From NCBI RefSeq assembly GCF_004114955.1, contig NZ_CP030053.1:2356001-2420000 (forward strand): a DNA stretch of 64,000 bases, given 5' to 3'. A program made the translations under genes and the position numbers. Positions within the stretch are counted from its first letter, which is position 1; each line of letters opens with the position of its first letter. Source of the stretch: Bradyrhizobium guangzhouense (lineage in GTDB: Bacteria > Pseudomonadota > Alphaproteobacteria > Rhizobiales > Xanthobacteraceae). This document shows positions 45,738 through 63,396 of the stretch, one piece after another. The notes below the pieces were generated by a model. It did no database searches. It saw only the letters and a list, made by a program, of their open reading frames with translations, and had not been told where the DNA came from.

Positions 45738-48700
45738 TCACCAGCTGTACTTGAACACGCCCTTGCCGGAGTAGCTGGTGACGTTGCCGGAGAACTCGCC
45801 GTCGAAGGTGCCGGCGATCGAGAAGCCGTTCAGCCATTTCATCTCGGCGCTGGCGCTGACGAGCGCGGAATCGGCATCGACCCTGGCGCCGTTGACGACG
45901 AAGCTGGTGCCCGGCAGCGTCTGGAACAGCGCGGTGACGGCGCGGCTCGGATTGTAGTCATGGGCCCAGGCGGCGCGGCCGCGCAGGGTCAGCACACCGT
46001 TCTGCATCGCATAGGATTTGTCGGTGCGCAGGCCGAGCTCGGAGCGGGTATCGATCAGCGATTGCGAGGCGTAGTTCAGTGCGAACAAGCCGCCGCCATT
46101 GAGGCTGACTTCGGAATAGTTGGGCAGGTTGAAATTCGTAACCTGGGCGGCGGCGTAGGGCGTGATGCCGACAAGCGGCGTGGTGAAGCGATAGCCGCCT
46201 TCGAAGCGCGCAGAGAAGGTGTCGGCCTTGAAGCGGCCCTGGAGCTGGTCGGCGCCGATCAGGGTGCGGTTGGTGGTGACGTCGTGCCAGCCATAGGCCA
46301 GCGCGGCCGAAAGATAGGCGGGTCCGATATTGTGCCGACCGTAGACTCCGGCCTGGAAAAGGTCGGCCGAGCCTGTGCCCATCGCATTGGCAAGCGAATA
46401 GTTCAGCCCGCCGCCGCCGAGCGCAAAGCCGACCAGCGTATCCATCGAAATCCTGTAGTCGGCGCCGGCCGCGCCGCCCCAGACCCGCGCCGTCAGATCC
46501 TGCGTGCCGACCGCGGCATTGCCGCCGACCTGCGCCGAGCCGCCGTAGCCGGCCGTCCAGACGCTCCAGCGATTGATCGGCTGCGCCGACAGCAGCGGCG
46601 CCTTGATCGCCATCGCGAAGGCCTCGCGCTCGCGCGCAGTGGCCGGGCGCATGGTCGCATAAGCATCGGCGTCATCGCTCTCGGCGAATTGCGCGACGCT
46701 GCCTGCCTTGGTGAAGCCGCTCGAGCGGCCCGCGATGGTCGGATCGAGCATCAGGTTCAGGAACTGGCCGTCGGCATTGATCGAAGACTGGATGATGCCG
46801 GTGCCGAGCTCGCCCGAGACGGTGCTCAGCCCTGACGGTGTCAGCGCGGCGAAGGCCGCGGGGATGCTGCCGGTCGAGTTGAAGAAGTTCGTCAGCGTGT
46901 TGGCGACGTTTTGCTGATTGGGGTTGAGGCCGCCGCCGCCCGGCGCGAAATTGATGCCGATGTTGAGGAACACGTCATGGGCGTCGTAGCTCAGCGAGGT
47001 GTTGAGCGCCGGCATGTTGGAGACGACCGCCGGATTGAAGGTGGTGCCGCCGAGGCCGCCGGTCGCGGTCAGGATCGTGTACTGCTTCTTGATGCTGCCG
47101 GAGTCGAAGATAGCACTCACCGTGGCGCCGCCGAGCGTGGCCGCGCCCGTGACGTTGGCGAGGCTGGCCGCGCTGGAGGAGACCTGCACCAGATAGGTCG
47201 AGGCGGCGGTGAAGCTCAGCGATCCATTGACCGCCAGCGTGCCGATCGCGCCCTTGCGGCCCGGCGCAAGCGTGCCGCCGGTGACCGCGACGTTGCCGAC
47301 GGTGCCGGTGCCCGCGAGCGTGCCGCCGGTGTTGACAGTGGTCGCACTGACGATCGAGCCGTCGACCTGCAGCCTGCCGCCGTTCACCGTGGTCGCACCG
47401 GCATAGGTGTTGGCGCCGGTCAGGGTTTCCGTGCCGCCGGCCATGGTGAGGCCGCCGCCGGCGCCACCGTCGGCGATGATTCCGGCGAAGATGCCGTTGC
47501 CGCTGGTGATGGTCAGCGTGTTGGCGCCGAGATTGACGTTGCCCGAGCCCGACAGCGATTTGATCGAGGTGCCGGCGGCCAGGGCCGAGATGTCGAAGAT
47601 GCCCTTGGCGATGACTTCGCGCGAGGTTGCGATGCTGCCGTCGCTGCCGCCGTTGGTGAGATCGAGCTCGCCGCCCGCCGCGATGGTCGTGGTGCCGGTG
47701 TAGGTGTTGATCCCGTTGAGCTGCTGCGTGGCGCCGTTTGCGATGACGAGGTTGCCGCCGACGCCGCCCCCGATGCCGCCATCCTGGATCACGCCGCCGA
47801 AGAAGCTGCCGCCCGTGATCGTCAGCGTCTTCGATCCCAGCGAAACGAAGCTGCCGCCGGCGGCGGAGACCAGCGCATTGACGGACGCGCCGGTGGTCGT
47901 CTGCGAAATGTCGAATGTCCCGCCTGCGCCGGGCGTGAAGGTGACGCTCGCCGAGTTCGCGATCGATCCGCTGCCTTTCAAGGCCAGCGTCGCGCCCGCG
48001 TCGATCTGCGTCGTGTCGGTGTAGGTGTTCACGCCGGACAGCGTCTGCGTTCCGCCGAAGACCTCCAGCCCCCCGGTGCCCTGGATCACGCCGGCAAACT
48101 CGGTCGAGCCGTTGATGATGAACAGGCCCTTGGTGCCCAAATTGACGATGCCGCTCGCGCTGCCGGCAAGGGTCGTGATGGGGGCGAACGACGGGGTCAT
48201 CGCCGAGATATCGAACGTCGCATTCACCGTCACGACGCTCGATGACGAGATGTCGCCGAAGCCCGACAGCGCCAGCGTTCCTGACGAGACCGTCGTCGCG
48301 CCGGTGTAGGTGTCGCCGCCGGTCAGCGTCAGTTTGCCGGTGCCGACCTTGGTCAGGCCGCCGCCGGTGCCGGAGATCACGCCGTCGACCTGGGTCGAGG
48401 TGTTGAGGCTGCCGGTGGTCAGCGTGTTGGCGCTGAGCACATAATTGCCCGCGCCCTCGATCGAGCCTGCGGTCATGCCGCCATTGGTCAGGCCGGAAAT
48501 GTCGACCGTGCCGCCGGCATTGGTGATGAAGCGCGCGTTGCCGCCGCTCGCCGTGGCGGTGAAGCTCGTGGTGGCGAGATTGTTGGTCGTAATGGTGGAG
48601 CTGCCTGCAGTAGCGGAACCGTCGAAGTTCAGCGAGCCGCTGTTGGTGATGCTCGACGTGCCAGCGGTGGTGTTGTTGTGGAAGTTCAGCGTCGCGGATG

Positions 48701-49337
48701 CCGCGTTGATGATGGTGGAGCCGGCGGCCGTTGCGTTGCTGAAGAAGTCGATCTGGCCGTTCGCATTGTTGGTGATTTGTGAGGTGCCAGCCGAGGCGAA
48801 ATCCTCGAACGTCACGAAGCTGTTGTTGATGAGGGTCACCGACCCCGCCGTGCTGTTCTGGATGAAGTTGACGGTGCCGCCGGTCGCGTTGGTGATGGTC
48901 ACCGCGCCGGTGCCGCCACTCGCGGTGCTGTTCTGCTGAAACACCAGATTGTTGCCGGAGGTGACTCCGAAATTCTGCGCATTGCCGGAATTGTTGATAA
49001 TGCCTGTCCCGTTGACGATGAACGGGTTACCGACAGTGACCGTGTAGGCCTGAGCGGTGCCGTTGAACAGGACCGTGCTGATCGTGATGATGCCGTTGTT
49101 GTTATCGACGGCGGCGCTTCCGGTGTTACCGAAGGTTGCGGTCCCGTCCGGCACGGTGGGGCTCGACCAGTTCGTCGGATCGGTCCAGTCGGAGGTGGCG
49201 CCAACCCAGGTGCCATCGACCGCATGCGCGGCGACGACGCCGAGCGCCGTGGTTGCTAGCAGTGTCGCCAGTGAATGCCTGATGACGGCGGGCAGGCGGC
49301 CATCAATCCTTCGAGGCGCAATGATCGAGTTGGCCAT
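45738..49337 (-). CDS. Autotransporter (type V) with PATR repeats and C-terminal beta-barrel
   Basis: 1199 residues from ATG 49337, preceded by GAAGGG. The extended signal region ends LATTALGVVAAHA. The passenger is Thr/Gly/Asn-rich with at least four autotransporter-associated beta-strand repeats (LTKVGTGKLTLTGGDTYTGA, LEVFGGTQTLSGVNTYTDT, LVIANGATQQLNGINTYTGT, LTMAGGTETLTGANTYAGAT). The last about 280 residues (RWSVWTAGYGGSAQVGGNAA onward) are the 12-strand barrel, ending in FKYSW instead of the commoner terminal Phe. It is likely a surface adhesin or matrix protein. It sits between gspM and a gspC/N-like gene in the opposite direction, so it looks inserted in the T2SS locus. Confidence 0.9.
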   Translation of the reverse strand: MANSIIAPRRIDGRLPAVIRHSLATLLATTALGVVAAHAVDGTWVGATSDWTDPTNWSSPTVPDGTATFGNTGSAAVDNNNGIITISTVLFNGTAQAYTVTVGNPFIVNGTGIINNSGNAQNFGVTSGNNLVFQQNSTASGGTGAVTITNATGGTVNFIQNSTAGSVTLINNSFVTFEDFASAGTSQITNNANGQIDFFSNATAAGSTIINAASATLNFHNNTTAGTSSITNSGSLNFDGSATAGSSTITTNNLATTSFTATASGGNARFITNAGGTVDISGLTNGGMTAGSIEGAGNYVLSANTLTTGSLNTSTQVDGVISGTGGGLTKVGTGKLTLTGGDTYTGATTVSSGTLALSGFGDISSSSVVTVNATFDISAMTPSFAPITTLAGSASGIVNLGTKGLFIINGSTEFAGVIQGTGGLEVFGGTQTLSGVNTYTDTTQIDAGATLALKGSGSIANSASVTFTPGAGGTFDISQTTTGASVNALVSAAGGSFVSLGSKTLTITGGSFFGGVIQDGGIGGGVGGNLVIANGATQQLNGINTYTGTTTIAAGGELDLTNGGSDGSIATSREVIAKGIFDISALAAGTSIKSLSGSGNVNLGANTLTITSGNGIFAGIIADGGAGGGLTMAGGTETLTGANTYAGATTVNGGRLQVDGSIVSATTVNTGGTLAGTGTVGNVAVTGGTLAPGRKGAIGTLAVNGSLSFTAASTYLVQVSSSAASLANVTGAATLGGATVSAIFDSGSIKKQYTILTATGGLGGTTFNPAVVSNMPALNTSLSYDAHDVFLNIGINFAPGGGGLNPNQQNVANTLTNFFNSTGSIPAAFAALTPSGLSTVSGELGTGIIQSSINADGQFLNLMLDPTIAGRSSGFTKAGSVAQFAESDDADAYATMRPATAREREAFAMAIKAPLLSAQPINRWSVWTAGYGGSAQVGGNAAVGTQDLTARVWGGAAGADYRISMDTLVGFALGGGGLNYSLANAMGTGSADLFQAGVYGRHNIGPAYLSAALAYGWHDVTTNRTLIGADQLQGRFKADTFSARFEGGYRFTTPLVGITPYAAAQVTNFNLPNYSEVSLNGGGLFALNYASQSLIDTRSELGLRTDKSYAMQNGVLTLRGRAAWAHDYNPSRAVTALFQTLPGTSFVVNGARVDADSALVSASAEMKWLNGFSIAGTFDGEFSGNVTSYSGKGVFKYSW

Positions 49338-49618
49338 CTGCCCTTCGCAAATCTCTAAAGCAAATCGGGAGCGATAACGTTCCGGCGGCATGATCCCACG
49401 GTGTCGCCTCCGGCTGCAATGAACGGGCATCAATTTGCCTGGGGTTCCCGCCAGTTTCCTTTGCAATTTCAGTAATCGTGGCCATTGGGCAACAATTTGA
49501 CGCATCGCAACATAGCAGGGAATCAACCAGCGAAGAGCGGGTTGATGGCGAGGCTTATCAGAATTACATTAGTGCGGCAGGGCAGCCGCGGACGGTCGCG
49601 GTTTGCAAGGGACTTTCG

Positions 49619-52523: not shown

Positions 52524-53666
52524 TCAGCGCAGGAGAATGTCCCGCAACGTGTCGCAGACCCGCTGCTGCTGCGATTCGCTCAAGCCGATCCAGAACGGCA
52601 GCCTGACCAGCCGCTCCGACACCGACGTCGTGGTTTTGAGTTCGCCGGCCGCGCGGCCAAACCGCCGCCCCGCTGGCGACGAGTGAAGCGGCACATAGTG
52701 GAAGACCGCGTGAATTCCTCGCTCCTTGAGCGCTGCAAGAACCGCGCCGCGGTCGATCTCTGGGGCCAGCAGGACGTAATACATGTGTCCGTTCTGGCGG
52801 CTGCCGTCGGGCACGATGGGCCGGCGCAGCACGCCCTGCTGCTCCAATCCGGCGAGCATGCCGTGATAGCGGTTCCAGATCGTCAGCCGCTCAGCCGTGA
52901 TGCGGTCGGCCTGCTCGAGCTGGGCCCACAGAAAGGCCGCGGTCATCTCGTTCGGCAGAAAGGAGGAGCCGACGTCCTGCCAGTTGTACTTGTCGACCTC
53001 GCCACGGAAAAACCGGCTCCGATCGGTGCCCTTCTCACGCATGATCTCAGCGATGGTGACGAGCTCGGGATCGTTAACCAAGATGCATCCGCCCTCGCCG
53101 GACATGATGTTCTTGGTCTCGTGGAAGCTGAAGCTGCCGATGCGCCCCATCGCCCCAAGTGCGCGGCCCTTGTAGTCCGCCATGATGCCCTGCGCGGCGT
53201 CCTCGACGACCGTGAGGTTGTGGCGCTCGGCGAGCGCCAGGATCGGATCCATGTTGCAGCTGACGCCGGCGTAATGCACCGGAGCGATCACGCGCGTGCG
53301 CGGCGTGATGGCGGCTTCGATCTGCCGTTCGTCCAGATTGAGCGTGTCCTCGCGCACGTCGACGAACACCGGCGTTGCGCCGCGCAGCACGAACGCATTC
53401 GCGGTCGAGACGAAGGTGAACGAGGGCACGATGACCTCGTCGCCGCTCTTGAGGTCGAGCATCAGCGCGGCGAGATCGAGAGCGGACGTGCAGGAGTGCG
53501 TCAGCAGCGCCTTCGCGGAGCCGGTGTTCCGCTCGAGCCATTCATGGCAGCGCTTGGTGAACGATCCATCGCCGGAAAGGTGATGGTCGCGATGAGCTTG
53601 CTCAATGTAAGCAAGCTCGTTTCCAGTCAAATACGGCCGATTAAAGGGTATGAACTCGGATCCCAT
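52524..53666 (-). CDS. wecE: dTDP-4-amino-4,6-dideoxygalactose transaminase (WecE/RffA type)
   Basis: 380 residues, close to E. coli WecE. FIPFNRPYLTGNELAYIEQA is the usual N-terminus. THSCTSALDLAALMLDL binds the PLP phosphate, VVEDAAQGIMADYKGRALG carries the Asp, and FSFHETKNIMSGEGG has the Schiff-base Lys. WecE converts dTDP-4-keto-6-deoxyglucose and glutamate to dTDP-4-amino-4,6-dideoxygalactose, a precursor of Fuc4NAc. The required substrate can be made by rfbA and rfbB in the same region. Orientation is opposite to its neighbours. Confidence 0.88.
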   Translation of the reverse strand: MGSEFIPFNRPYLTGNELAYIEQAHRDHHLSGDGSFTKRCHEWLERNTGSAKALLTHSCTSALDLAALMLDLKSGDEVIVPSFTFVSTANAFVLRGATPVFVDVREDTLNLDERQIEAAITPRTRVIAPVHYAGVSCNMDPILALAERHNLTVVEDAAQGIMADYKGRALGAMGRIGSFSFHETKNIMSGEGGCILVNDPELVTIAEIMREKGTDRSRFFRGEVDKYNWQDVGSSFLPNEMTAAFLWAQLEQADRITAERLTIWNRYHGMLAGLEQQGVLRRPIVPDGSRQNGHMYYVLLAPEIDRGAVLAALKERGIHAVFHYVPLHSSPAGRRFGRAAGELKTTTSVSERLVRLPFWIGLSESQQQRVCDTLRDILLR

Positions 53667-53765: not shown

Positions 53766-55328
53766 TTGAAGCACAAAGTCGAGTCGAGCGGAAACTTGGG
53801 GCCGGGCGACTACGGCCGTCATAGCCGGGTTCGCCGCCTTGTTCAAGGCTGGTCGGCGAATCTCGTCCAGCTGGCGCTTGGCATTACGCAACAGGTTTTC
53901 CTCGTCCCGGTCTTTCTGCAGTTCTGGACTGGCGAGGGGCTCGCGGCTTGGTTCGCCATCGTCGCTGCGGGAAACCTCATGCTGGTTGCGGACGCCGGCC
54001 TGCAATTGCACGTGATCAATCGCTTCCTAACCTTCAAGTCGAGCGTCGACCCGGACGGGCGCACGGCAAGCTTCTATGCGCGCATGCATCGCATCTATCT
54101 TGCCGTCGCCGGCGGGCTCTCCCTGCTGCTGCTGGCGCTGGTGCGATTTGTGCCGCCCTCGACAACCCTGGGGTTCCAGGACATCACTGGGTTCGACACC
54201 GCGTTTCTGATCATGACGATCAGTGTGCTGGCGATCATGCCGTCCAACCTCGTATCGGCCCTGTACCGGGCGAGGGGCGAGTACGGCCGAGCGGTGTGGC
54301 TGCAGAATGCGGCTATGCTCGTCGCGCAGTTTGCGCAGGTCGTTGCCGTCCTGATCGCTGGTACGCTGATCGCCGTTACGATCGCCTTCACCGCGATACA
54401 GGTCGCGATGGCGCTTTTCCTCCTTGTGGTCGACGCGCCGCGCCTGTTTCCGTTTCTGCGCCGCAAGCAGACCCGGGCATCCTGGCGCTGGTCTGGCGGA
54501 CAATTCCGACTGGCGTTTCCGTTCGCCGTCGCCAACCTCACCGAACTCGCGCTGCTCAACGCGCCGGTGCTGCTGGTCAGCGCGCTCCTGGTCGATCGTA
54601 TTGCAGTCGCGCAGTGGGGACTGATGAGGGTGGTCGTCGGGCTCCTGAGAGGATTGTGCGTTCAGGTGAGTCTGCCCCTGGCTGCCGAGCTCGGGCACGA
54701 CCACGCCATCGGCGACAGGGAGCGGCTGCGCCGCCTGTTCGCGCGTGGCTCGCTGCTCGTCACCGTGCTCTCGAGCTTGATCGTGTCCGGACTGCTGCCG
54801 TTCTGGTCGGATTTCTTCGCGTTGTGGACGCACGACAGCATTCCCTACGATGCCGCACTCACCGCGACCCTGCTGCTCGGCTCCGTCGCCACCGCGCCAT
54901 CGCTGCTCGCACTGTCGTTCGCCAACTACAGCAACCGCCGCGAGCTTCTCGTTCGCACTAAGGGTCTTCAGCTCATCGCCTTCCTAATCCTGTCCGTCAC
55001 GTTGATCCCTATGCTGGGCGTGCTGGGAGCGGCGATCTCGATCGTGCTGAGCGATTTCCTGATCCAGACGTGTGTGCTCGGCGTCATCGTCATGCGCCAA
55101 ACCTTGCAGAGCGCGGGGCGCCACCTGCTGTTCAGTGGAGTGGTCGCCGTGGCCATCATCCTGCTCGGCTACGGCGTCGGCGCGGTCATCAGGTCGTCGC
55201 TGCCGCTGGCGGGTTTCCCGCGCCTCGCCGGCGAGAGCGTCTTGTGGCTGGCTGCAATGGCGCTCGTCGCCGGCGTGATATGGACCCGCCGCATTCGGGA
55301 CACGCTGATGGCCTCGATCCCGGATTAG
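53766..55328 (+). CDS. wzx: Wzx-like polysaccharide flippase (MATE/MOP superfamily)
   Basis: 520 residues, TTG start after GAGAGGT. About thirteen to fourteen membrane helices (for example IYLAVAGGLSLLLLALVRFV, IAVTIAFTAIQVAMALFLLV, LFSGVVAVAIILLGYGVGAV) with a basic N-terminal stretch. The pattern fits the polysaccharide transport family that flips undecaprenyl-linked repeat units across the inner membrane. Its location among sugar-nucleotide and glycosyltransferase genes supports an O-antigen or exopolysaccharide role. The last bases overlap the convergent rfbA stop. Confidence 0.82.
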   Translation: MKHKVESSGNLGPGDYGRHSRVRRLVQGWSANLVQLALGITQQVFLVPVFLQFWTGEGLAAWFAIVAAGNLMLVADAGLQLHVINRFLTFKSSVDPDGRTASFYARMHRIYLAVAGGLSLLLLALVRFVPPSTTLGFQDITGFDTAFLIMTISVLAIMPSNLVSALYRARGEYGRAVWLQNAAMLVAQFAQVVAVLIAGTLIAVTIAFTAIQVAMALFLLVVDAPRLFPFLRRKQTRASWRWSGGQFRLAFPFAVANLTELALLNAPVLLVSALLVDRIAVAQWGLMRVVVGLLRGLCVQVSLPLAAELGHDHAIGDRERLRRLFARGSLLVTVLSSLIVSGLLPFWSDFFALWTHDSIPYDAALTATLLLGSVATAPSLLALSFANYSNRRELLVRTKGLQLIAFLILSVTLIPMLGVLGAAISIVLSDFLIQTCVLGVIVMRQTLQSAGRHLLFSGVVAVAIILLGYGVGAVIRSSLPLAGFPRLAGESVLWLAAMALVAGVIWTRRIRDTLMASIPD

Positions 55329-56200
55329 GAGAGCCCGGCCTGACGGATGAGGTATTTGCCGTAGGCCGTATTCTTCAACGGCTCGGCGAGTTTCACGAGC
55401 TGTTCCGCGTTGATGAATCCTTGGATGTAGGCGACTTCCTCCGGACAGGCGATCTTCAAGCCCTGCCGCTTCTCCACGATGTAGATGAATTCAGAGGCTT
55501 CCAGCAGCGATTCATGGGTGCCTGCATCGAGCCAGGCATAACCGCGGCCGAACCGCTCGGCGCGGAGCTCGCCGCGCTCCAGGTACCACTGGTTGACGTC
55601 GGTGATCTCGAGCTCGCCGCGCGCCGACGGCCTGATCTCGCGCGCGACGTCGACTACGCGCTCGTCGTAGAAGTAGAGGCCCGTCACGGCGTAGTTCGAT
55701 TTCGGCGCCTTCGGTTTCTCGACGATTCCCGCCGGCCGGTGCGATGCGTCGAACTCGATCACGCCATAGCGCTCGGGATCGTCGACCCAGCAGGCGAACA
55801 CCGTCGCGCCGCGGGTCTGCTCGGCGGAATCGCGCATCAGCGCGCGGAGATTGTCGCCGTAGAAGATGTTGTCGCCGAGGATCAGGGCGCAGGGACTGCC
55901 GGCGAGGAAGTCGCGACCAATCAGGAACGCCTCGGCAATGCCGCCCGGATGATCCTGAATCGCAAAGGAGAGCTCGATGCCCCATTGCCGCCCGTTGCCG
56001 AGGAGCCGCTTGAACTGGTCGATCTCTTCCGGCGTCGTGATGATCAGCAGCTCGCGGATTCCGGCAAGCATCAAGGTAGTCAACGGATAGTAGACCAACG
56101 GCTTGTCGTAGATCGGCAGCAATTGCTTCGATGTTGCAAGCGTCAAGGGATAGAGTCGGGTTCCCCGACCGCCAGCCAGAATGATTCCTTTGCGTTTCAT
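55325..56200 (-). CDS. rfbA: Glucose-1-phosphate thymidylyltransferase
   Basis: 291 residues, the standard RfbA/RmlA length. KGIILAGGRGTRLYPLTLAT is the nucleotide-binding loop, SKQLLPIYDKPLVYYPL the signature lysine region, and ALILGDNIFYGDNL contains the catalytic Asp. It makes dTDP-glucose from dTTP and glucose-1-phosphate, the first step to all dTDP-deoxysugars in this cluster. rfbB lies 6 kb away; rfbC and rfbD are not in the window. Confidence 0.96.
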   Translation of the reverse strand: MKRKGIILAGGRGTRLYPLTLATSKQLLPIYDKPLVYYPLTTLMLAGIRELLIITTPEEIDQFKRLLGNGRQWGIELSFAIQDHPGGIAEAFLIGRDFLAGSPCALILGDNIFYGDNLRALMRDSAEQTRGATVFACWVDDPERYGVIEFDASHRPAGIVEKPKAPKSNYAVTGLYFYDERVVDVAREIRPSARGELEITDVNQWYLERGELRAERFGRGYAWLDAGTHESLLEASEFIYIVEKRQGLKIACPEEVAYIQGFINAEQLVKLAEPLKNTAYGKYLIRQAGLS

Positions 56201-56451
56201 GTGCTCGCACTCTATGTATAATGACGGCTAATTAGAGTCGTCCGTTAGCACGCGGCGCAGCCAACTCAAAGATCGAGTCAGCAAAGTCGACGCATTGGGA
56301 CGTGCTGAAGGTAGAAAATCGTCAATAATTTCAATGTTTTGGGACGATAGTCTGACTGCGTTGCTACGCCTCGACCTGTGAGATAGGAAGGCAATGGGCG
56401 CACAAGATGCTTCGATGCGCCAGGCTCCCTCCTGCTGACCGGCAAGGTATC

Positions 56452-57483
56452 ATGGCAAAGCGCGTTTACTGCACTTACTTCGATCACAACTACATCGCGC
56501 GGGGACTGGCGCTCTTCCACTCGCTGCAACAACACGCACCCGGCTCGCGGCTCTGGGTGCTGTGCCTGAGCGAGCCTTGTTACCGCGCGCTGATCGCGCT
56601 CAACCTGCCGAATCTCGTTCCCTGCCGGCTTGGCGATTTCGAAGCGGCGGATCCTCAAGTCGCCGCAACCAAACCCACGCGCAGCACGATCGAGTACTAC
56701 TTCACCTGTTCGCCGGCCTGGAAGCTGCATGTGCTCGCCAACGAGCCGGACGCGGAGTGGGTCACCTATCTGGATAGCGACCTCTTTTTCTTTGCATCGC
56801 CTGAGCCGATCTACGACGAAATGAAGGGCGCCTCATTCGGCATCATCCCGCATCATTTCACTAGGCGAATCGCCTTCAGGCAGCGCTTCGGTACCTACAA
56901 TGTCGGCTGGGTCAGCGTCCGCAATTGCGAGGAGGGAATTGCGGCTCTCCGCTGGTGGAGAGAACGCTGTATTGAGTGGTGTTTTGACTATGTGGATGTT
57001 GAGGGCGACCGATTCGCGGATCAACGCTATCTTGATCGGCTGCCACGCCTATTTCCTAACGTCCGCATTATCGAAAATCTGGGCGCCAATCTGGCGCCCT
57101 GGAATATGGCCGAGCGGGAGATGGAATGGCGCGACGGCGCACTGCTGATCGACAGCAAGTACAATCTATTGTTCTTTCACTTCCACGGTGTTCAGCGCGT
57201 GGGTGACTACTACTTCAATAGCCACCGTGTCTTTCGCGCGCCGTTTCCCTCTATCATGCGCGCGCACGTCTATGAGCCTTACGTGGCGGCGCTCGCCGCG
57301 GCGGAAGCCAAGGTCGCGCCGATGCTGGCCGGCGACCGCGTCGAGATTGTGCGCAATTGGGCCGTGGGCAGCCGCGTCGATCATCTCCTCAACATCTTCC
57401 GGAGGTTGAGGACGGTGGTGTTGAGGTGGCTCGACGTGGTCACGCGCCGTGCCATTGCTGTGCCGCGCGAGCCGGCTCGCTAG
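56452..57483 (+). CDS. GT8-like glycosyltransferase
   Basis: 343 residues from ATG 56452 with GGCAAGG upstream. The N-terminus KRVYCTYFDHNYIARGLALF and the DxD site in VTYLDSDLFFFASPEP fit a GT-A fold of the GT8/nucleotide-diphospho-sugar transferase type. GTYNVGWVSVRN and FADQRYLDRLPRLFPNV are conserved in the related family found in O-antigen loci. The C-terminal LLFFHFHGVQRV contains His residues that often bind metal. It is the first gene of a four-gene operon. Confidence 0.8.
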   Translation: MAKRVYCTYFDHNYIARGLALFHSLQQHAPGSRLWVLCLSEPCYRALIALNLPNLVPCRLGDFEAADPQVAATKPTRSTIEYYFTCSPAWKLHVLANEPDAEWVTYLDSDLFFFASPEPIYDEMKGASFGIIPHHFTRRIAFRQRFGTYNVGWVSVRNCEEGIAALRWWRERCIEWCFDYVDVEGDRFADQRYLDRLPRLFPNVRIIENLGANLAPWNMAEREMEWRDGALLIDSKYNLLFFHFHGVQRVGDYYFNSHRVFRAPFPSIMRAHVYEPYVAALAAAEAKVAPMLAGDRVEIVRNWAVGSRVDHLLNIFRRLRTVVLRWLDVVTRRAIAVPREPAR

Positions 57484-57506
57484 TCCCACCCCCTTGAGAA
57501 GCCACA

Positions 57507-58448
57507 ATGCGATTGCTAATCCTCGGTTATTCCTCCATAGCAGAACGGCGCGTGATACCGGCCGCCGCAAAAGTGCCCTCCATCTCGGAGGTTTCGATTG
57601 CGAGCAAGAGCCGGCCCCGCCCCGCCGAATGGCCCAAGGCCGGACGCTTCTTCGCAGACTATGAACAAGCCTTGCGCCAGTCAGACGCCGACGTCGTGTA
57701 TTTGTCGCTCCCTAACGCCATGCACGAGCTTTGGTTGTATGCCTCGTTGGCGGCGGGCAAACATGTCGTTGTCGACAAGCCGGCGCTGATGAACGCGCAT
57801 GCAGGCCGGCGCGCGATCGCGGCCGCGCGTTCGGCCGGGTGCCTCGTCGCCGAGGCAACCGTGTTCGGCTATCATCCGGTGTTTGCGCAGATTGCGACGC
57901 TCTTGGCAGACAACGGCCCGCTGACGCAAGCAGCCGCACAGTTCATTATTCCCCCACTCCCGATCGATAACTTTCGCAACCACGCCGAGCTCGGCGGCGG
58001 CTGCCTTCTGGACATGGGACCCTATGCTGCCGCGACCATGCGCCTCCTCGGGGGCTCCGTGTCCCGCCTGACCGCAATCGGGGGTGGGCGGCATCCAGAG
58101 ACCGGCGTCGATATGGGCTTCTCGGTGCAGGCGCAGCTCGCTAATGGCGGGGTGTTCTCGGGCCATTACAGTTTTGAGGGCGAATATCAGAACCGCCTGC
58201 TCGTGGTGGCGCGTTCGGGCTCGGCCATGATCGAGCGCGTGTTCAGCCCGCCTGCCGATTTCCGCCTGGAATTGCGACATCGCGTGCGTAATAACGAGAA
58301 TGTCGAGGTAATCGAGCCGGCCGACACATTCGCAAATTTCCTGACTTCGGTGACGGACGCTATCGACGGGGGTGATCATGAGATATTTTATAGCGACCTG
58401 CTGATGGATGCCGAATGCCGCGACCGGATAGCCGCCGCGCTTACCTAG
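57507..58448 (+). CDS. Gfo/Idh/MocA-family sugar oxidoreductase
   Basis: 313 residues, 23 bp after the glycosyltransferase gene. The NAD(P)-binding Rossmann fold begins LLILGYSSIAERRV, a degenerate form of GxGxxG. VVYLSLPNAMHELWLYASLA leads to the conserved HVVVDKPALMN (Lys of the EKP motif). LDMGPYAAATMRLLGG is the downstream family block. In dTDP-deoxysugar pathways such proteins (TylC1/OleW-type) reduce the 3-keto group after 2,3-dehydration. That role fits this gene, because the 2,3-dehydratase-like gene lies in the same operon. Confidence 0.82.
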   Translation: MRLLILGYSSIAERRVIPAAAKVPSISEVSIASKSRPRPAEWPKAGRFFADYEQALRQSDADVVYLSLPNAMHELWLYASLAAGKHVVVDKPALMNAHAGRRAIAAARSAGCLVAEATVFGYHPVFAQIATLLADNGPLTQAAAQFIIPPLPIDNFRNHAELGGGCLLDMGPYAAATMRLLGGSVSRLTAIGGGRHPETGVDMGFSVQAQLANGGVFSGHYSFEGEYQNRLLVVARSGSAMIERVFSPPADFRLELRHRVRNNENVEVIEPADTFANFLTSVTDAIDGGDHEIFYSDLLMDAECRDRIAAALT

Positions 58449-58485
58449 CCAGAACTCGCCGTCGCACGTGAAGGAGCGAACAGGA

Positions 58486-59586
58486 ATGCCGATCAACGTT
58501 TGGGACTACCTTCGGGAGTACGACGAGCTTCGCGACGAGATCCTGAAGGCGGTCGACCGCGTATTCAGCTCGGGTCGGCTAGTGCTCGGGCAGGAGGGCA
58601 TAAAGTTCGAGCGCGAGATGGCCTCGTATCTTGGGGTTGCTGGGGGAGTTGGCGTCAACAGCGGAACGGATGCGATCTATATCGCGCTCGCGTCGCTCGG
58701 TGTGAAGGCCGGCGACGAGGTGATCACCGTGCCCAACACCGCGGTTCCGACCGTCTCTGCGATCCGCACCCTCGGCGCCAAGCCCGTCTTTGTCGATATC
58801 CGCGACGACGATTTCTTGATGGATGTCGCTCAGATCGAGGCGGCGATCACTCCGCGCACGAAGGCTATTATTCCTGTCCATCTCTACGGTCAGTGCGTCG
58901 ACCTCGAACCGCTGATGAGGCTTGCCGAAATGCACGGTCTGAAGGTGATGGAGGATTGCGCCCAGGCGCAAGGCGCGCTGTACAAGAATAGCCAGGCCGG
59001 TAGCGTCGGCCATGCCTCGTCCTTCTCGTTCTACCCAACCAAGGTGCTTGGCGCCTATGGTGACGGCGGCATGGTGCTGAGCAATGACGAGGCGGCGCTC
59101 AAGCTCGCCCGCAGCCTGCGCTTCTACGGCATGGAGACCCAGTATTATTCGGAGCGGCACGGCTACAATTCGCGCCTCGACGAGGTTCAAGCTGCCATCC
59201 TGTCGCTGAAGCTGCCGCTGGTGAACGGCTGGATCGACCGGCGCCGACAGATTGCTGAGCGCTACAACCGCGGGCTCAAGGACAGCGGTCTCAGCCTGCC
59301 GGCCGAAAACGCGCACAGTCGGCATACCTATTACGTATATGTGGTCGAGCATCCCAGCGATCGCGACGGCGTGCTCGACCGGCTTGCCAAGCGCGACATC
59401 AACTGCAACGTTTCGTATCGTTGGCCGATTCACATCATGCGCGGCAGCACGGACCTCGGTTATCGCGAAGGTCAGTTTCCGGTGGCAGAACGCAAGGCGC
59501 AGCGTATCTTTTCGCTGCCGATGTATCCGCACTTGAAGGATGAGGAAGTCGATACCGTGATCAACGTATTGCGGGAAGTGGTGTAA
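58486..59586 (+). CDS. DegT/DnrJ/EryC1-family sugar aminotransferase (3-keto-hexose type)
   Basis: 366 residues from ATG 58486, with AAGGAG upstream. VLGQEGIKFEREMASYLGV, VNSGTDAIYIALASLGVKAG, VMEDCAQAQGALYKNSQAG and SFSFYPTKVLGAYGDGG (Schiff-base Lys in PTK) are family motifs. The PTKVLGAYGDGG form is closest in feel to 3-amination enzymes such as DesV, FdtB and QdtB, unlike the SFHETKN of WecE-type 4-amination enzymes. It overlaps the next gene by one base. It is likely to aminate C-3 of a dTDP-keto sugar. Confidence 0.88.
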   Translation: MPINVWDYLREYDELRDEILKAVDRVFSSGRLVLGQEGIKFEREMASYLGVAGGVGVNSGTDAIYIALASLGVKAGDEVITVPNTAVPTVSAIRTLGAKPVFVDIRDDDFLMDVAQIEAAITPRTKAIIPVHLYGQCVDLEPLMRLAEMHGLKVMEDCAQAQGALYKNSQAGSVGHASSFSFYPTKVLGAYGDGGMVLSNDEAALKLARSLRFYGMETQYYSERHGYNSRLDEVQAAILSLKLPLVNGWIDRRRQIAERYNRGLKDSGLSLPAENAHSRHTYYVYVVEHPSDRDGVLDRLAKRDINCNVSYRWPIHIMRGSTDLGYREGQFPVAERKAQRIFSLPMYPHLKDEEVDTVINVLREVV

Positions 59587-60284
59587 TGGCCGAGCGCACG
59601 CACCTCGACTGGCTACGCCAGCGTCTGGTCTTGTCGCATACGATCGAGCCGAAGGATCCCGCGCCGCTGCTTGCCTGGCGCGAGCAGCGACGCAGCGCGA
59701 TCACTTTCAGGGCGGAGCTGATCGGCCTCAATGACGTGCGCGGCTGGTCGCGCGATGAAAACGGCAATGTTCGGCACCAGACCGGACAGTTCTTCAGTGT
59801 CGAGGGCGTGAGGGTCCAGAGCGGGGACTTGCGTGAGGTCGCTTCCTGGGACCAGCCGATTTACAGCCAGCCTGAAGGCGGAATTCTCGCGCTCCTGGCG
59901 CGCGAGACCTCAGCCGACGGCGTTCAATTCCTGCTTTGCGGCAAGCCGGAACCTGGCAACATCGGCATCATCCAGTTCTCGCCGACTATCCAGAGCACGT
60001 GGTCCAATATCCGTCGAGCGCACGCCGGAAAGCGGCCCCCGATGGTCGAAGTGCTGGCCGCCGAAAAAGGCGTGCGCTTCGTCTACCGTGCGGAGCACAA
60101 CGAAGAAGGGGGGCGGTTCTGGCGCAAGTCGAATGAGAACATCATCGCCTTCCTGGACGACGAAAGCGTCATTGAGACGGACATGACGATGTTTTGCTGG
60201 GCGAGCCTGAGTCAGATCAGAGAACTCGCTCTAATGGATAATGTGATGAGCCCGTTCGTCAAGACAATCGTGGCGCCGCTTTAG
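59586..60284 (+). CDS. NDP-hexose 2,3-dehydratase-like protein, half-length
   Basis: 232 residues. RGWSRDENGNVRHQTGQFFS with VEGVRVQSG, SWDQPIYSQPEGGILALLAR and TIQSTWSNIRRAHAGKRPPM are the blocks of NDP-hexose 2,3-dehydratases (EvaA, TylX3, SpnO type). Those enzymes are about 430-490 residues and contain two such repeats; only one is present here, and no trace of a second lies between its stop and the next gene. The start overlaps the aminotransferase stop by one base. The inferred reaction removes the C-2 hydroxyl of dTDP-4-keto-6-deoxyglucose to give a 3,4-diketo sugar. It could act as a dimer in place of the tandem form. Confidence 0.78.
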   Translation: MAERTHLDWLRQRLVLSHTIEPKDPAPLLAWREQRRSAITFRAELIGLNDVRGWSRDENGNVRHQTGQFFSVEGVRVQSGDLREVASWDQPIYSQPEGGILALLARETSADGVQFLLCGKPEPGNIGIIQFSPTIQSTWSNIRRAHAGKRPPMVEVLAAEKGVRFVYRAEHNEEGGRFWRKSNENIIAFLDDESVIETDMTMFCWASLSQIRELALMDNVMSPFVKTIVAPL

Positions 60285-60289
60285 CAGCG

Positions 60290-61090
60290 TCAGGCCTTTT
60301 CTAATTTCGCAAACAGATAGGTCTCCATGATCGAATGGCGTCCTGTTACTTCGACGACGTCGTAGGGAATTGACGTCCAAGTCGATGTGAGACTCAGGCC
60401 GGCCTGTTCGCACAAGGCCATAAGCTCTTTCTTGGAGAAAATGATCTCCACCACGGGCGCGCCGTAGGCATATTTTTGCAGGAACACCGTCGGACCATCG
60501 TTGGAGGTGAAGACGGGTACGCTATGCAGGATGGAATAATGCGCCACCCTTGCGGCCTCGCGGATCGCCGCTGCGTAGTCGAGTATATGCATCAACGACA
60601 CGCCATTGAAGACGATGTCGAAGCTCGCGTCGCCATAAGCGAGCCGCGTGGCGTCACCCACCTCGAAGGAATCGGACGGATAGTTCGCGCGCGCCCGCTC
60701 GATCATGGCCTTCGAATAATCGAGCCCGGTATATTGTACCCTGCCGGTCAAGAGCGTGCCGAATACCTCTGAATAGTAACCACTTCCGCAGCCGACCTCG
60801 AGCAGCCGCGGGCGGCTTAATTGAGTAGCAGAGATTGCTTGCGCGGCCACGGCGAAATCCAGCCGAGGCTCGCCTTTTCTCATGTCTGCGATAAGGCTTC
60901 GATAAGCATTCTCCTGCCGTCGCACGGTCCGCGCCTGCAACCATCCGCCCGATGAGGCTTGGAGGCGGCGGGCTTCGTCGATACCCTCGAGTACCCGATA
61001 GTCGGTTGATGAAAGGATGCGTCGGCGCAAGAAGGGCGTCGCCTTGACGACCTTCTTGCCGACAGATCGGATCGCGCGGCGAAGGTTCAT
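60290..61090 (-). CDS. SAM-dependent methyltransferase
   Basis: 266 residues from ATG 61090. RPRLLEVGCGSGYYSEVFGT is motif I, VQYTGLDYSKAMIERAR motif II and SFDIVFNGVSLMHILDY motif IV. It is the last gene of a tightly packed minus-strand operon, starting 2 bp after the glycosyltransferase stop, and it converges on the dehydratase gene with five bases between stops. The acceptor is probably a sugar or lipid-linked glycan. Confidence 0.88.
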   Translation of the reverse strand: MNLRRAIRSVGKKVVKATPFLRRRILSSTDYRVLEGIDEARRLQASSGGWLQARTVRRQENAYRSLIADMRKGEPRLDFAVAAQAISATQLSRPRLLEVGCGSGYYSEVFGTLLTGRVQYTGLDYSKAMIERARANYPSDSFEVGDATRLAYGDASFDIVFNGVSLMHILDYAAAIREAARVAHYSILHSVPVFTSNDGPTVFLQKYAYGAPVVEIIFSKKELMALCEQAGLSLTSTWTSIPYDVVEVTGRHSIMETYLFAKLEKA

Positions 61091-61092
61091 CA

Positions 61093-62280
61093 CTATGTCC
61101 TGGTTGCGTCGAGGAACCCGAGGATCTCGCGGGTCCTGTGGTGAAAAGTGTGCTCTTGGAGTGTCTTTGCCTGGCCCGTGTGTGCCACCGCGGTGCGTCT
61201 CGCGTCGTCGCCGAGGTAGCGCTCGACCGTCTTCAGACAATCGTCGATGGTGTGCCATACGGTGACCTCGCGATCGGGCTCGAACAACGTGTGGAGATTG
61301 TCCTTGAAGTCGGTGAGCAGGAACGCCCCGACGCCGGTCGCCTCGAACAGACGCATGTTTCCCGCTTCCCGGCCGGCGAGGTCGATGTGCGAGTTCAGCG
61401 TGATCTTCGACTGTCGAAGCACCTGATACATGTCCGTGCCCCAGACTTCACCCTGGAAGCAGGCGTGCAGGGGCGAGGAGGTGGGAAGCGTTCGCGGAAT
61501 CGTGCCCCACAACTTGAGCTCATACCGTCGCGCCACCGCCTCGAGCAGCGTAATCCGTTGACGGTGATCGTCGGATATCGTTCCGACGAACGAAACGTCG
61601 ACCGGGCCATCAGTCACCGCCGGTAGCCGCTCCAGCACGACCGGCTCGAATGCGAGATGGCTGACCTCGGCCCGAATGCTGCGCCTGCGGAACCATTCGA
61701 CCGTCGTCGGCAACTGGGAAATCATCAGATCGTAGGTGGTCCAATCCTCGCCGGCGGATGGCTCGATCCCGACCTGCCCGATGACGATCGGCTTGCAGAC
61801 TGCTTTAATGCGGCGGATCAGCCGTGTGTCAATGTAGAAGACGTCCTGATTGAGAATGAGATCGGGCCGGAACTCCTCGATCTGCGCGAGTAGGATGTGC
61901 TCGCTTTGCGGGTCGAGGCGCGGACTGAGACCCACCCTGCGTGCCAGCGGCCGCAGCAGCGGCTTAAATGGGACGGCCGCCCGCTGCATCCAGCGGGGCA
62001 GTCGCTGTGCCTTGCCGGACGCGATTTCGGCAGGCCCTTCGATAGCCAAGCCGTGTTCGCGTGCCCAGGCCGTTTGCAAATAGGCATTGTTGACATGAAT
62101 CTCCGCCGCGGCATGGCCGAGCTTTGCGAAGTTACACGAGTAGAAATCGGCGACGCCGAATAGAGTGGCGTTCCTCGCCGCCATCTGATCGGCGTAGCAG
62201 GCCTCGGATAACGCCGGCTCGCGCCGGTACATCCAGGTCAGAAAGCGAGGATAGTCGGCGTTCAGGACGAGAATGCGCAT
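61093..62280 (-). CDS. CgeB/GT4-like glycosyltransferase
   Basis: 395 residues. MRILVLNADYPRFLTWMYRR starts a GT-B fold; LILNQDVFYIDTRLIRRIK and PIVIGQVGIEPSAGEDWTTY form the N-domain. The C-domain carries KITLNSHIDLAGREAGNMRL and FEATGVGAFLLTDFKDNLHT, characteristic of the CgeB-like group of glycosyltransferases (Glyco_trans_1_2). It is 3 bp downstream of rfbB and 2 bp upstream of the methyltransferase, so the three are co-transcribed. Acceptor and donor are unknown. Confidence 0.85.
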   Translation of the reverse strand: MRILVLNADYPRFLTWMYRREPALSEACYADQMAARNATLFGVADFYSCNFAKLGHAAAEIHVNNAYLQTAWAREHGLAIEGPAEIASGKAQRLPRWMQRAAVPFKPLLRPLARRVGLSPRLDPQSEHILLAQIEEFRPDLILNQDVFYIDTRLIRRIKAVCKPIVIGQVGIEPSAGEDWTTYDLMISQLPTTVEWFRRRSIRAEVSHLAFEPVVLERLPAVTDGPVDVSFVGTISDDHRQRITLLEAVARRYELKLWGTIPRTLPTSSPLHACFQGEVWGTDMYQVLRQSKITLNSHIDLAGREAGNMRLFEATGVGAFLLTDFKDNLHTLFEPDREVTVWHTIDDCLKTVERYLGDDARRTAVAHTGQAKTLQEHTFHHRTREILGFLDATRT

Positions 62281-62283
62281 CCG

Positions 62284-63396
62284 CTAGACCGCGGTCCGGA
62301 AGCTGTAGTTCTTGTCGAGCCAGGCCTTGTATCCGCCGGTGACGATCTCGTCCCACCAGCTCTGATGGTCGAGGTACCAGTGGACAGTTTGATCGAGACC
62401 TGCCTCGAACGTTATGTGGCAACGTTCGCCTAGCTTCATGGCGAGCTTGTCTGAATCGATGGCGTAACGGTGATCATGGCCGGGACGGTCCGTGACGTAT
62501 CGGATCAGCGAATGGGAGGACTGCTTGGTTGCCGCCGGGCATGACGGGAAGCGCGCGGCCAGCGCCGGATCTTCCGCGAACGCACGATCGATCAGGTCGC
62601 ATATGGTGCCCACGACATCGCGATTGTTTCGCTCGCTGCGGCCACCCACATTGTAGGTCTCACCCGGCGATCCGCGTTCGATGATCGTCATCAGCGCCCG
62701 GCAGTGCTCAGACACGTGCAGCCAGTCGCGAATGTTCGAGCCATCTCCGTAGATCGGCAGCGGCTTACCTTCGAGCGCGTGAATGATCATGAGGGGAATG
62801 AGCTTTTCCGGGTGTTGGTACGGACCATAATTGTTCGAGCAATTGGTGATCAATGCCGGCAGCCCGTAGGTCACCACGTAGGACCGTACCAAATGATCGC
62901 TCGCTGCCTTGCTGGCGGCATAGGGCGAGTTCGGACGATAGGGATTAGACTCCGAGAACGGCGGGTCAGTGAGTTTCAGCGATCCGTAAACTTCGTCGGT
63001 CGAGACATGAAGAAAGCGCGACTGCGACATGGTGTCCGATGCGCGCCAGCAATCTAGGGCCGCCTTGAGCAGCGTAAACGTGCCGAGCACGTTGGTCTGA
63101 AGGAACGCTTCAGGGTCGACGATAGAACGGTCGACGTGAGATTCGGCGGCCAAGTGCAGCACGCGATCGAATTTGTGCTCGTCGAACAGCGAACGCACCA
63201 TACCGGCATCCCTGATGTCGCCCTTGATGAATAAAATGCTGCCGCTCGCGATCAACGGTTCGAGGCTGCGGATATTGGCCGCATATGTCATCGCGTCTAG
63301 CACAACTAACCCGTCCTCCGGACGCGCCGTCCGCCACGCATGCACCAGATTCTGGCCGATGAAGCCGGCCCCTCCAGTGATCAGAACCTTATGCAT
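62284..63396 (-). CDS. rfbB: dTDP-glucose 4,6-dehydratase
   Basis: 370 residues, a little longer than usual. KVLITGGAGFIGQNLVHAWR is the NAD loop, LHLAAESHVDRSIVDPEAF and FLHVSTDEVYGSL hold catalytic Thr/Asp/Glu, and NPYRPNSPYAASKAASDHLV has the Tyr-x-x-x-Lys pair. It converts dTDP-glucose to dTDP-4-keto-6-deoxyglucose. This keto sugar is the branch point for WecE, for the 2,3-dehydratase route and for rhamnose synthesis. It sits between the Wzy-like gene and the glycosyltransferase gene in one minus-strand operon. Confidence 0.95.
   Translation of the reverse strand: MHKVLITGGAGFIGQNLVHAWRTARPEDGLVVLDAMTYAANIRSLEPLIASGSILFIKGDIRDAGMVRSLFDEHKFDRVLHLAAESHVDRSIVDPEAFLQTNVLGTFTLLKAALDCWRASDTMSQSRFLHVSTDEVYGSLKLTDPPFSESNPYRPNSPYAASKAASDHLVRSYVVTYGLPALITNCSNNYGPYQHPEKLIPLMIIHALEGKPLPIYGDGSNIRDWLHVSEHCRALMTIIERGSPGETYNVGGRSERNNRDVVGTICDLIDRAFAEDPALAARFPSCPAATKQSSHSLIRYVTDRPGHDHRYAIDSDKLAMKLGERCHITFEAGLDQTVHWYLDHQSWWDEIVTGGYKAWLDKNYSFRTAV

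What the first reader, a model, noticed from the sequence alone, without database searches (positions are those of the whole stretch)
56452..63396. Possible antibiotic-type deoxy-amino sugar pathway in a rhizobial surface-glycan cluster
RfbA (55325-56200) and RfbB (62284-63396) supply dTDP-4-keto-6-deoxyglucose. In the operon at 56452-60284, a 2,3-dehydratase-like protein, a 3-amination-type DegT aminotransferase and a Gfo/Idh/MocA oxidoreductase sit together. In actinomycete vancosamine, daunosamine or mycarose pathways these three enzyme types convert that keto sugar to 2-deoxy, 3-amino or 3-hydroxy forms. The families are established knowledge; their joint action here is inference. No 3-epimerase or 4-ketoreductase is seen in the window, so the end product cannot be named.
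Basis: partly seen in the sequence, partly recalled or inferred. Interest (0 to 1): 0.78.

Follow-up and report, generated by a model that had tools for sequence, protein, structure and literature searches.

The report
One-domain sugar dehydratase in O-antigen cluster
A soil bacterium of the Bradyrhizobium genus carries, in what looks like its surface-sugar gene cluster, a half-sized relative of an enzyme known from antibiotic makers, next to the two partner enzymes needed to make a rare deoxy amino sugar; a laboratory test of it would show whether half of the antibiotic enzyme is enough.

Summary

The genes come as two exchangeable cassettes. Type 1 (this window) has Glu122, DegT and the reductase. 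Type 2 has Asp122, a diverged DegT and no reductase. The carbonyl count fits dehydration for type 1: two ketones made, one aminated, one reduced. The genome as held has no RmlC-family epimerase, no RmlD above cut-off and no FdtA, so a D-series 3-amino-2,3,6-trideoxyhexose is the best guess. No activity is shown. New variant of a known kind.

The parts
59586..60284 (+). One-domain NDP-hexose 2,3-dehydratase homologue (232 aa), type 1; Glu122 and Glu173 align with EvaA Glu139 and Glu190
58486..59586 (+). DegT/DnrJ/EryC1/StrS aminotransferase, C3-amination type by best named PDB matches (open frame begins at 58468)
   Evidence: PF01041 367 bits; 7b0d 341, QdtB 285, DesV 258 bits against 188.7 for perosamine synthetase; Lys in the FYPTK motif aligned with that of 7b0d
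57507..58448 (+). Gfo/Idh/MocA oxidoreductase, sugar-ketoreductase type
   Evidence: PF01408/PF22725; best PDB match a sugar 3-ketoreductase, 3rbv (KijD10, name recalled), 5e-35; K91 and Y173 align with the residues that differ in the variant entries 3rc9/3rcb and 3rc7
56452..57483 (+). Putative glycosyltransferase (YLDSDLFF, DxD-like, by eye), first gene of the operon; open frame begins at 56407
   Evidence: No Pfam or NCBIfam hit, best PDB E 0.24; position conserved beside the module; sequence drifts with cassette type
55325..56200 (-). RmlA/RfbA glucose-1-phosphate thymidylyltransferase
   Evidence: TIGR01207 457.7 bits
62284..63396 (-). RmlB/RfbB dTDP-glucose 4,6-dehydratase
   Evidence: TIGR01181 459.2 bits
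60290..61147 (-). SAM-dependent methyltransferase, possible sugar methyltransferase (start uncertain)
   Evidence: PF08241 9.3e-19; only weak PDB matches; conserved next to the dehydratase
61093..62280 (-). Glycosyltransferase
   Evidence: PF13524 1.1e-30
52524..53666 (-). WecE-type dTDP-4-amino-4,6-dideoxy sugar transaminase; a second likely user of dTDP-4-keto-6-deoxyglucose
   Evidence: TIGR02379 603.4 bits, cut-off 434.85
53766..55328 (+). Hydrophobic membrane protein, flippase (Wzx)-like by appearance only
   Evidence: No Pfam or NCBIfam hit; conserved position

Best explanation
The operon makes a dTDP-linked 2-deoxy amino sugar for an O-antigen-type glycan. RmlA and RmlB make dTDP-4-keto-6-deoxyglucose. 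The one-domain protein (59586) is a working 2,3-dehydratase that uses the EvaA pocket-A chemistry, probably as a homodimer: it removes the C2 hydroxyl and leaves a 3,4-diketone. DegT aminates C3. The Gfo/Idh/MocA enzyme reduces the remaining ketone (C4). The product would be a dTDP-3-amino-2,3,6-trideoxy-D-hexose, possibly methylated by the neighbouring methyltransferase and transferred by the neighbouring glycosyltransferase. Shown here: the families, fold, active-site residues, gene linkage and absence of the usual competing enzymes from the genome as held. Inferred: every catalytic step, the dimer, the regiochemistry and the product.
Against: The second EvaA domain is missing and nothing shows that one domain is enough. 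The two glutamates alone do not mark an active pocket: the residue aligned with E122 is Glu in 14 of 17 C-halves and that aligned with E173 in 16 of 17, although EvaA pocket B is reported inactive; and at E174 and R177 the one-domain proteins follow the C-halves. KijD10 is a C3 enzyme, so a C4 role for Gfo is a guess. The Glu122/reductase link rests on few independent events (one Glu to Asp change in the type 2 tree). One type 1 relative (G074) has changed residues in the motif (K120I, P123C) and an FdtA ketoisomerase in its cluster, not expected if all type 1 loci make one sugar by one route. No O-antigen structure was found for this lineage (listings only).
Confidence: 0.48

Rival explanations
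1. Same dehydratase, other regiochemistry: the Gfo enzyme reduces C3 as KijD10 does, and DegT then aminates C4, giving a dTDP-4-amino-2,4,6-trideoxyhexose.
For: Gfo's best match is a C3-ketoreductase, with the Lys and Tyr changed in its variant entries conserved.
Against: DegT scores far higher against C3-amination enzymes (QdtB 285, DesV 258 bits) than against C4 enzymes (perosamine synthetase 189, ArnB 158, 2fn6 115 bits); the C3/C4 labels of these entries are recalled. A C4-type enzyme (WecE) already lies in the cluster.
Confidence: 0.2
2. The one-domain protein is not a dehydratase but a Nudix-fold 3,4-ketoisomerase that does the job of FdtA/QdtA: it enolises C3 and reprotonates C4, and DegT aminates the new C3 ketone.
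For: DegT resembles enzymes that need such a ketoisomerase (recalled for QdtB and DesV-type routes), and the genome as held has no FdtA. The proposed EvaA mechanism also starts with C3 deprotonation (PMC8987622 section 24). Type 2 cassettes contain DegT and the one-domain protein without Gfo, which balances for an isomerase.
Against: For the window's type 1 protein a reductase would be left without a ketone, and both EvaA catalytic glutamates are kept. G074 carries FdtA as well as a type 1 protein. The reading fits type 2 better than type 1.
Confidence: 0.15
3. Two sugars from one branch point, as recalled for the kijanimicin cluster: the diketo intermediate is either reduced by Gfo to a 2,6-dideoxy sugar or aminated by DegT.
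For: Both enzymes could act on the same C3 ketone if both are C3-type.
Against: Only one glycosyltransferase-like gene sits in the operon, and follow-up enzymes for two sugars were not seen in it.
Confidence: 0.1
4. The protein is catalytically dead, or a regulatory partner, like pocket B of EvaA.
For: It is half of the known enzyme; the pocket B half is reported inactive (PMC8987622), and C-halves also mostly keep the two glutamates.
Against: At K120, N125 and K181 it follows the active N-halves; the motif is invariant in 120 of 120 listed type 1 relatives at K120, E122, P123, G124, N125 and E173; the own genome has no other PF03559 protein that it could assist.
Confidence: 0.07

Closest known systems
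EvaA of Amycolatopsis orientalis (PDB 4j7g/4j7h) and the actinomycete NDP-hexose 2,3-dehydratases
   Same: Same Pfam family; same fold as the EvaA N-terminal domain; pocket-A glutamates kept; RmlB and Gfo/Idh/MocA genes also neighbour four of the actinomycete genes read, a thymidylyltransferase two of them
   Different: One domain instead of two (232 aa against 434-476 aa for the 13 annotated actinomycete and Serratia genes); mosaic of N-half and C-half residues; sits in an O-antigen-type cluster, not beside polyketide genes
Angolosamine pathway of kidamycin/medermycin producers
   Same: dTDP-glucose synthase, 4,6-dehydratase, 2,3-dehydratase, 3-aminotransferase, a ketoreductase and a methyltransferase (PMC9452638, passages)
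   Different: There the product decorates a polyketide; here the reductase is Gfo/Idh/MocA (the angolosamine 4-ketoreductase is of another family, recalled) and the methyltransferase link is only positional
FdtA-FdtB / QdtA-QdtB pathway to 3-amino-3,6-dideoxyhexoses
   Same: DegT aminotransferase of the QdtB type and dTDP-4-keto-6-deoxyglucose as start (recalled)
   Different: No cupin ketoisomerase (PF05523) in the genome as held; a PF03559 protein stands beside the aminotransferase instead
KijD10 sugar 3-ketoreductase (3rbv)
   Same: Best PDB match, 5e-35, with the Lys and Tyr of the variant entries aligned
   Different: Low similarity; reaction and regiochemistry unproven

Membership tests
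PF03559 NDP-hexose 2,3-dehydratase domain family | Profile match above the curated cut-off over the whole domain | tested here: met
   175 bits, cut-off 25, profile positions 4-201 of 203
PF03559 NDP-hexose 2,3-dehydratase domain family | EvaA-type Nudix-like fold | tested here: met
EvaA-type 2,3-dehydratase | Pocket-A catalytic glutamates (E139, E190) | tested here: met
   E122 and E173 by alignment; conserved in type 1. Not specific to active halves: also in most C-halves
EvaA-type 2,3-dehydratase | Two tandem domains in one chain | tested here: not met
   One PF03559 copy, 232 aa; the next gene converges with 5 bases between; EvaA matches twice. So it is filed under the domain family, not under the two-domain subgroup
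EvaA-type 2,3-dehydratase | Elimination of C2-OH from dTDP-4-keto-6-deoxyglucose | not testable with these tools
   Needs protein and LC-MS
KijD10/TylC1-type sugar ketoreductase | Gfo/Idh/MocA fold family with catalytic Lys and Tyr | tested here: met
   PF01408 and PF22725; K91 and Y173 align with the positions changed in 3rc9/3rcb and 3rc7; that these are catalytic is recalled
KijD10/TylC1-type sugar ketoreductase | Reduces C3 of a 3,4-diketo-2,6-dideoxy sugar | not testable with these tools
QdtB/DesV-type C3 sugar aminotransferase | DegT family, PLP lysine, closest to C3-amination enzymes | tested here: met
   PF01041; ranking of PDB matches, their C3/C4 labels recalled; Lys of FYPTK aligned
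QdtB/DesV-type C3 sugar aminotransferase | Transfers the amino group to C3 | not testable with these tools
FdtA/QdtA cupin 3,4-ketoisomerase route | PF05523 cupin present in the genome | tested here: not met
   No match in the own genome; 1 of 13 genomes searched has one (G074)
dTDP-L-rhamnose pathway | RmlC and RmlD | tested here: not met
   No PF00908 match in the own genome; 16 TIGR01214 matches, none over cut-off

The most novel reading that the evidence does not exclude
A family of one-domain Nudix-fold sugar enzymes with the architecture that preceded the duplication in the antibiotic enzyme EvaA, in which a single residue marks two chemistries. Glu122 enzymes (type 1, this window) dehydrate C2/C3 and travel with a ketoreductase. 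Asp122 enzymes (type 2) have lost dehydration and act as 3,4-ketoisomerases that feed DegT directly. The two are exchanged as cassettes between closely related O-antigen clusters of Bradyrhizobium.
Probability: 0.15. Interest if true: 0.82.

Novelty: new variant of a known kind. Interest (0 to 1): 0.6.

Why it matters
The 2,3-dehydratase EvaA carries a second domain whose pocket is reported to be an inactive leftover of a gene duplication (PMC8987622). A natural one-domain relative with the active-site glutamates intact makes it directly testable whether one domain is enough, and offers an outside view of the duplication. It also suggests that 2-deoxy amino sugars thought of as antibiotic decorations may be built into the surface glycans of soil and plant-associated bacteria. 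The exchange of dehydratase types, with or without a reductase, inside one O-antigen-type cluster would be a clean case of surface-antigen switching by cassette. Small, single-domain sugar dehydratases would be useful tools for glycan engineering.

Tried and rejected
A recent truncation of an actinomycete gene was considered and rejected as the simple story. In a tree of 57 domain rows (11 type 1, 13 type 2, 16 N-halves, 17 C-halves; the one-domain rows are a hand-picked part of the listed relatives, and the incomplete first domain of P. alni was left out), each of the four groups is one side of a branch and the one-domain proteins together form one group (100/100), not nested in either half. 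The N-half group itself is weakly supported (90/47) and long branches meet, so whether the one-domain form predates the duplication or left the N-half lineage very early is not resolved. Of 16 columns that separate N from C halves, type 1 follows N at 6, C at 5 and neither at 5; type 2 follows N at 7, C at 5 and neither at 4 (7 divergent or incomplete rows left out before this count: both halves of Hoeflea, Serratia and Streptomyces NBC_01003, and the C-half of P. alni).

A gene-prediction or assembly artefact was rejected: the one-domain form recurs in 18 genomes, one of them with a broken copy, and among the 240 relatives listed (of 602 and 374 hits) the lengths are 231-232 (120 of 120) and 229-234 (119 of 120, one of 216). 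By contrast, a search with an actinomycete N-half as query returned, in its 120 listed of 283 hits, lengths scattered from 176 to 407 aa, many labelled partial.

I first took Glu against Asp at position 122 as a mark of active against inactive pockets; the recount shows Glu in 14 of 17 C-halves, so this mark was dropped, the odds of the main reading were lowered from 0.50 to 0.48 and those of the dead-enzyme rival raised from 0.05 to 0.07.

The first AlphaFold model (only close relatives in the alignment) was mediocre, pLDDT 75.3, and Foldseek fitted it badly, rmsd above 9 A; a more varied alignment gave 90.4. Searches of phage records and viral contigs found no relative. Paper searches (listings only, apart from passages of PMC8987622 and its section 24, and one passage of PMC4053727; led to passages of PMC9452638) showed nothing on a one-domain 2,3-dehydratase or on 2,3-dehydratases in Bradyrhizobium; the library is open-access only, the tool cannot search a word with a comma, and mostly listed unrelated papers. 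The EvaA structure paper itself was not read; its residues come from the review, whose pocket B numbering (E352, D353) I could match only in part on the alignment.

Full report
What is there. The window lies at 2,356,001-2,420,000 of the larger contig (7.16 Mb) of an 8.14 Mb genome. The right end of the window is an O-antigen-type cluster: WecE-type transaminase, a flippase-like membrane protein, RmlA, then the operon in question, a methyltransferase, a glycosyltransferase and RmlB. Beyond the window follow further genes without family matches, a second Gfo/hexapeptide transferase/DegT trio, a GDP-mannose dehydratase and an epimerase-family gene.

A family, not an accident. Among 265 genomes of the genus 18 carry PF03559, and all 19 matches lie in open frames of at most 371 codons, too short for two full domains. 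Wider samples gave 4 of 391 in the family, all in this genus, and 1 of 398 in the phylum, the own genome. Protein searches gave 602 relatives for this protein and 374 for its divergent paralogue; the 120 listed of each have near-constant length. In the plasmid collection 85 records match, 75 of them Streptomyces; the 17 genes read all show two matched stretches, the first one incomplete in P. alni.

Two cassettes. The core order is shared by 16 of 18 loci; G099 is cut by its contig end and G012 is broken. Eleven unbroken loci, this window included, have glycosyltransferase, Gfo, DegT, type 1 dehydratase (G099 without the first because of the contig end). Five have glycosyltransferase, DegT, type 2 dehydratase (53-54% identical to the window protein) and no Gfo; two of these hold an extra opposite-strand gene there. 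One (G006) has type 2, Gfo, DegT and type 1 together. One (G012) is a broken type 1 locus. Genome-wide, a Gfo at 68% identity or more is present in 8 of 8 type 1 or hybrid genomes tested and absent in 5 of 5 type 2 genomes, where the best match has E 1.8e-7. DegT splits by type (76% between, 92 and 85% within), and the glycosyltransferase largely does (57% against 74 and 71%, though type 2 is not one clean side of its tree), while RmlA, RmlB, the second glycosyltransferase, the methyltransferase and the flippase-like gene do not. Against genome G926, WecE, flippase-like, RmlA, second glycosyltransferase and RmlB are 81-96% identical, but the first glycosyltransferase, DegT, dehydratase and methyltransferase 58, 76, 54 and 64%, which looks like an exchanged cassette; some genes further out are also lower (67, 73, 75 and 76%), so the edges are not perfectly sharp.

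The catalytic residue follows the cassette. Position 122 is Glu in all 12 type 1 proteins of unbroken loci (hybrid included) and in the type 2 protein of the hybrid, and Asp in 5 of 5 type 2-only loci. In the listed relatives it is Glu in 120 of 120 type 1, Asp in 111 and Glu in 9 of 120 type 2. In a FastTree rooted on type 1 the 111 Asp rows form one group (support 0.89), so the change happened once in this sample. The count of carbonyl groups makes sense of this. A dehydratase leaves two ketones, one for DegT and one for a reductase; an enzyme that only moves the ketone leaves one, for DegT alone. This is inference, and it rests on one or two independent events.

The partners. Gfo is closest to the sugar 3-ketoreductase 3rbv (KijD10), and the Lys and Tyr that differ in its variant entries align with K91 and Y173. 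DegT is closest to a PDB entry named scyllo-inositol transaminase (7b0d), then, among named enzymes, QdtB, DesV and WbpE, well above perosamine synthetase and ArnB. No RmlC-family protein, no RmlD above cut-off and no FdtA cupin is found in the genome as held. So the dTDP-4-keto-6-deoxyglucose made here has two visible outlets, WecE and this operon, and a C5 epimerase of the known family is missing, which points to a D-series sugar. The enzyme list resembles the one proposed for angolosamine (PMC9452638, passages).

Results against the reading. G074 has an intact FdtA cupin where rmlA lies in the other loci, and its type 1 protein has Ile for Lys120 and Cys for Pro123. This may mean a changed sugar there, or that the one-domain protein does an FdtA-like job. 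KijD10 works on C3, which would compete with a C3 aminotransferase. The methyltransferase has only weak named relatives. No assay, no O-antigen structure and no expression data stand behind any step.

Verdict.

Noticed in passing
L026:8102-11653 (genome G006): Hybrid operon with two one-domain PF03559 genes, type 2 (with Glu122) and type 1, around Gfo and DegT; a possible two-gene equivalent of two-domain EvaA.
   Followed up: partly
L024:6082-6456 (genome G074): Intact FdtA cupin ketoisomerase where rmlA lies in the other loci, in a type 1 cluster whose dehydratase motif is changed (K120I, P123C).
   Followed up: partly
L027 (genome G012): The same cluster with several broken genes (short pieces of Gfo, DegT, dehydratase and methyltransferase); RmlA and RmlB match over nearly full length.
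   Followed up: no
L033:6998-8278, Hoeflea sp. IMCC20628 plasmid: Very divergent two-domain PF03559 protein (426 aa) in a glycan cluster with a GT61 glycosyltransferase and an acyltransferase; 22% identical to the window protein.
   Followed up: no
L034:4539-5579, Pseudonocardia alni plasmid: 346 aa PF03559 protein lacking the front of its first domain, flanked by two IS transposases.
   Followed up: no
L010:13435-16072 (just right of the window): Second Gfo/Idh/MocA, hexapeptide transferase and DegT trio, resembling the wlbA-wlbB-wlbC arrangement (name recalled), followed further on by a GDP-mannose 4,6-dehydratase and an epimerase-family gene.
   Followed up: partly
L061:7785-8666 and L064:8902-9768: Extra gene between glycosyltransferase and DegT, in opposite direction, in two type 2 loci; the L061 copy matches Methyltransf_24.
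   Followed up: partly
window 45738-49526 (-): 1262 aa protein that looks like an autotransporter (repetitive passenger, beta-barrel-like end), by eye only.
   Followed up: no
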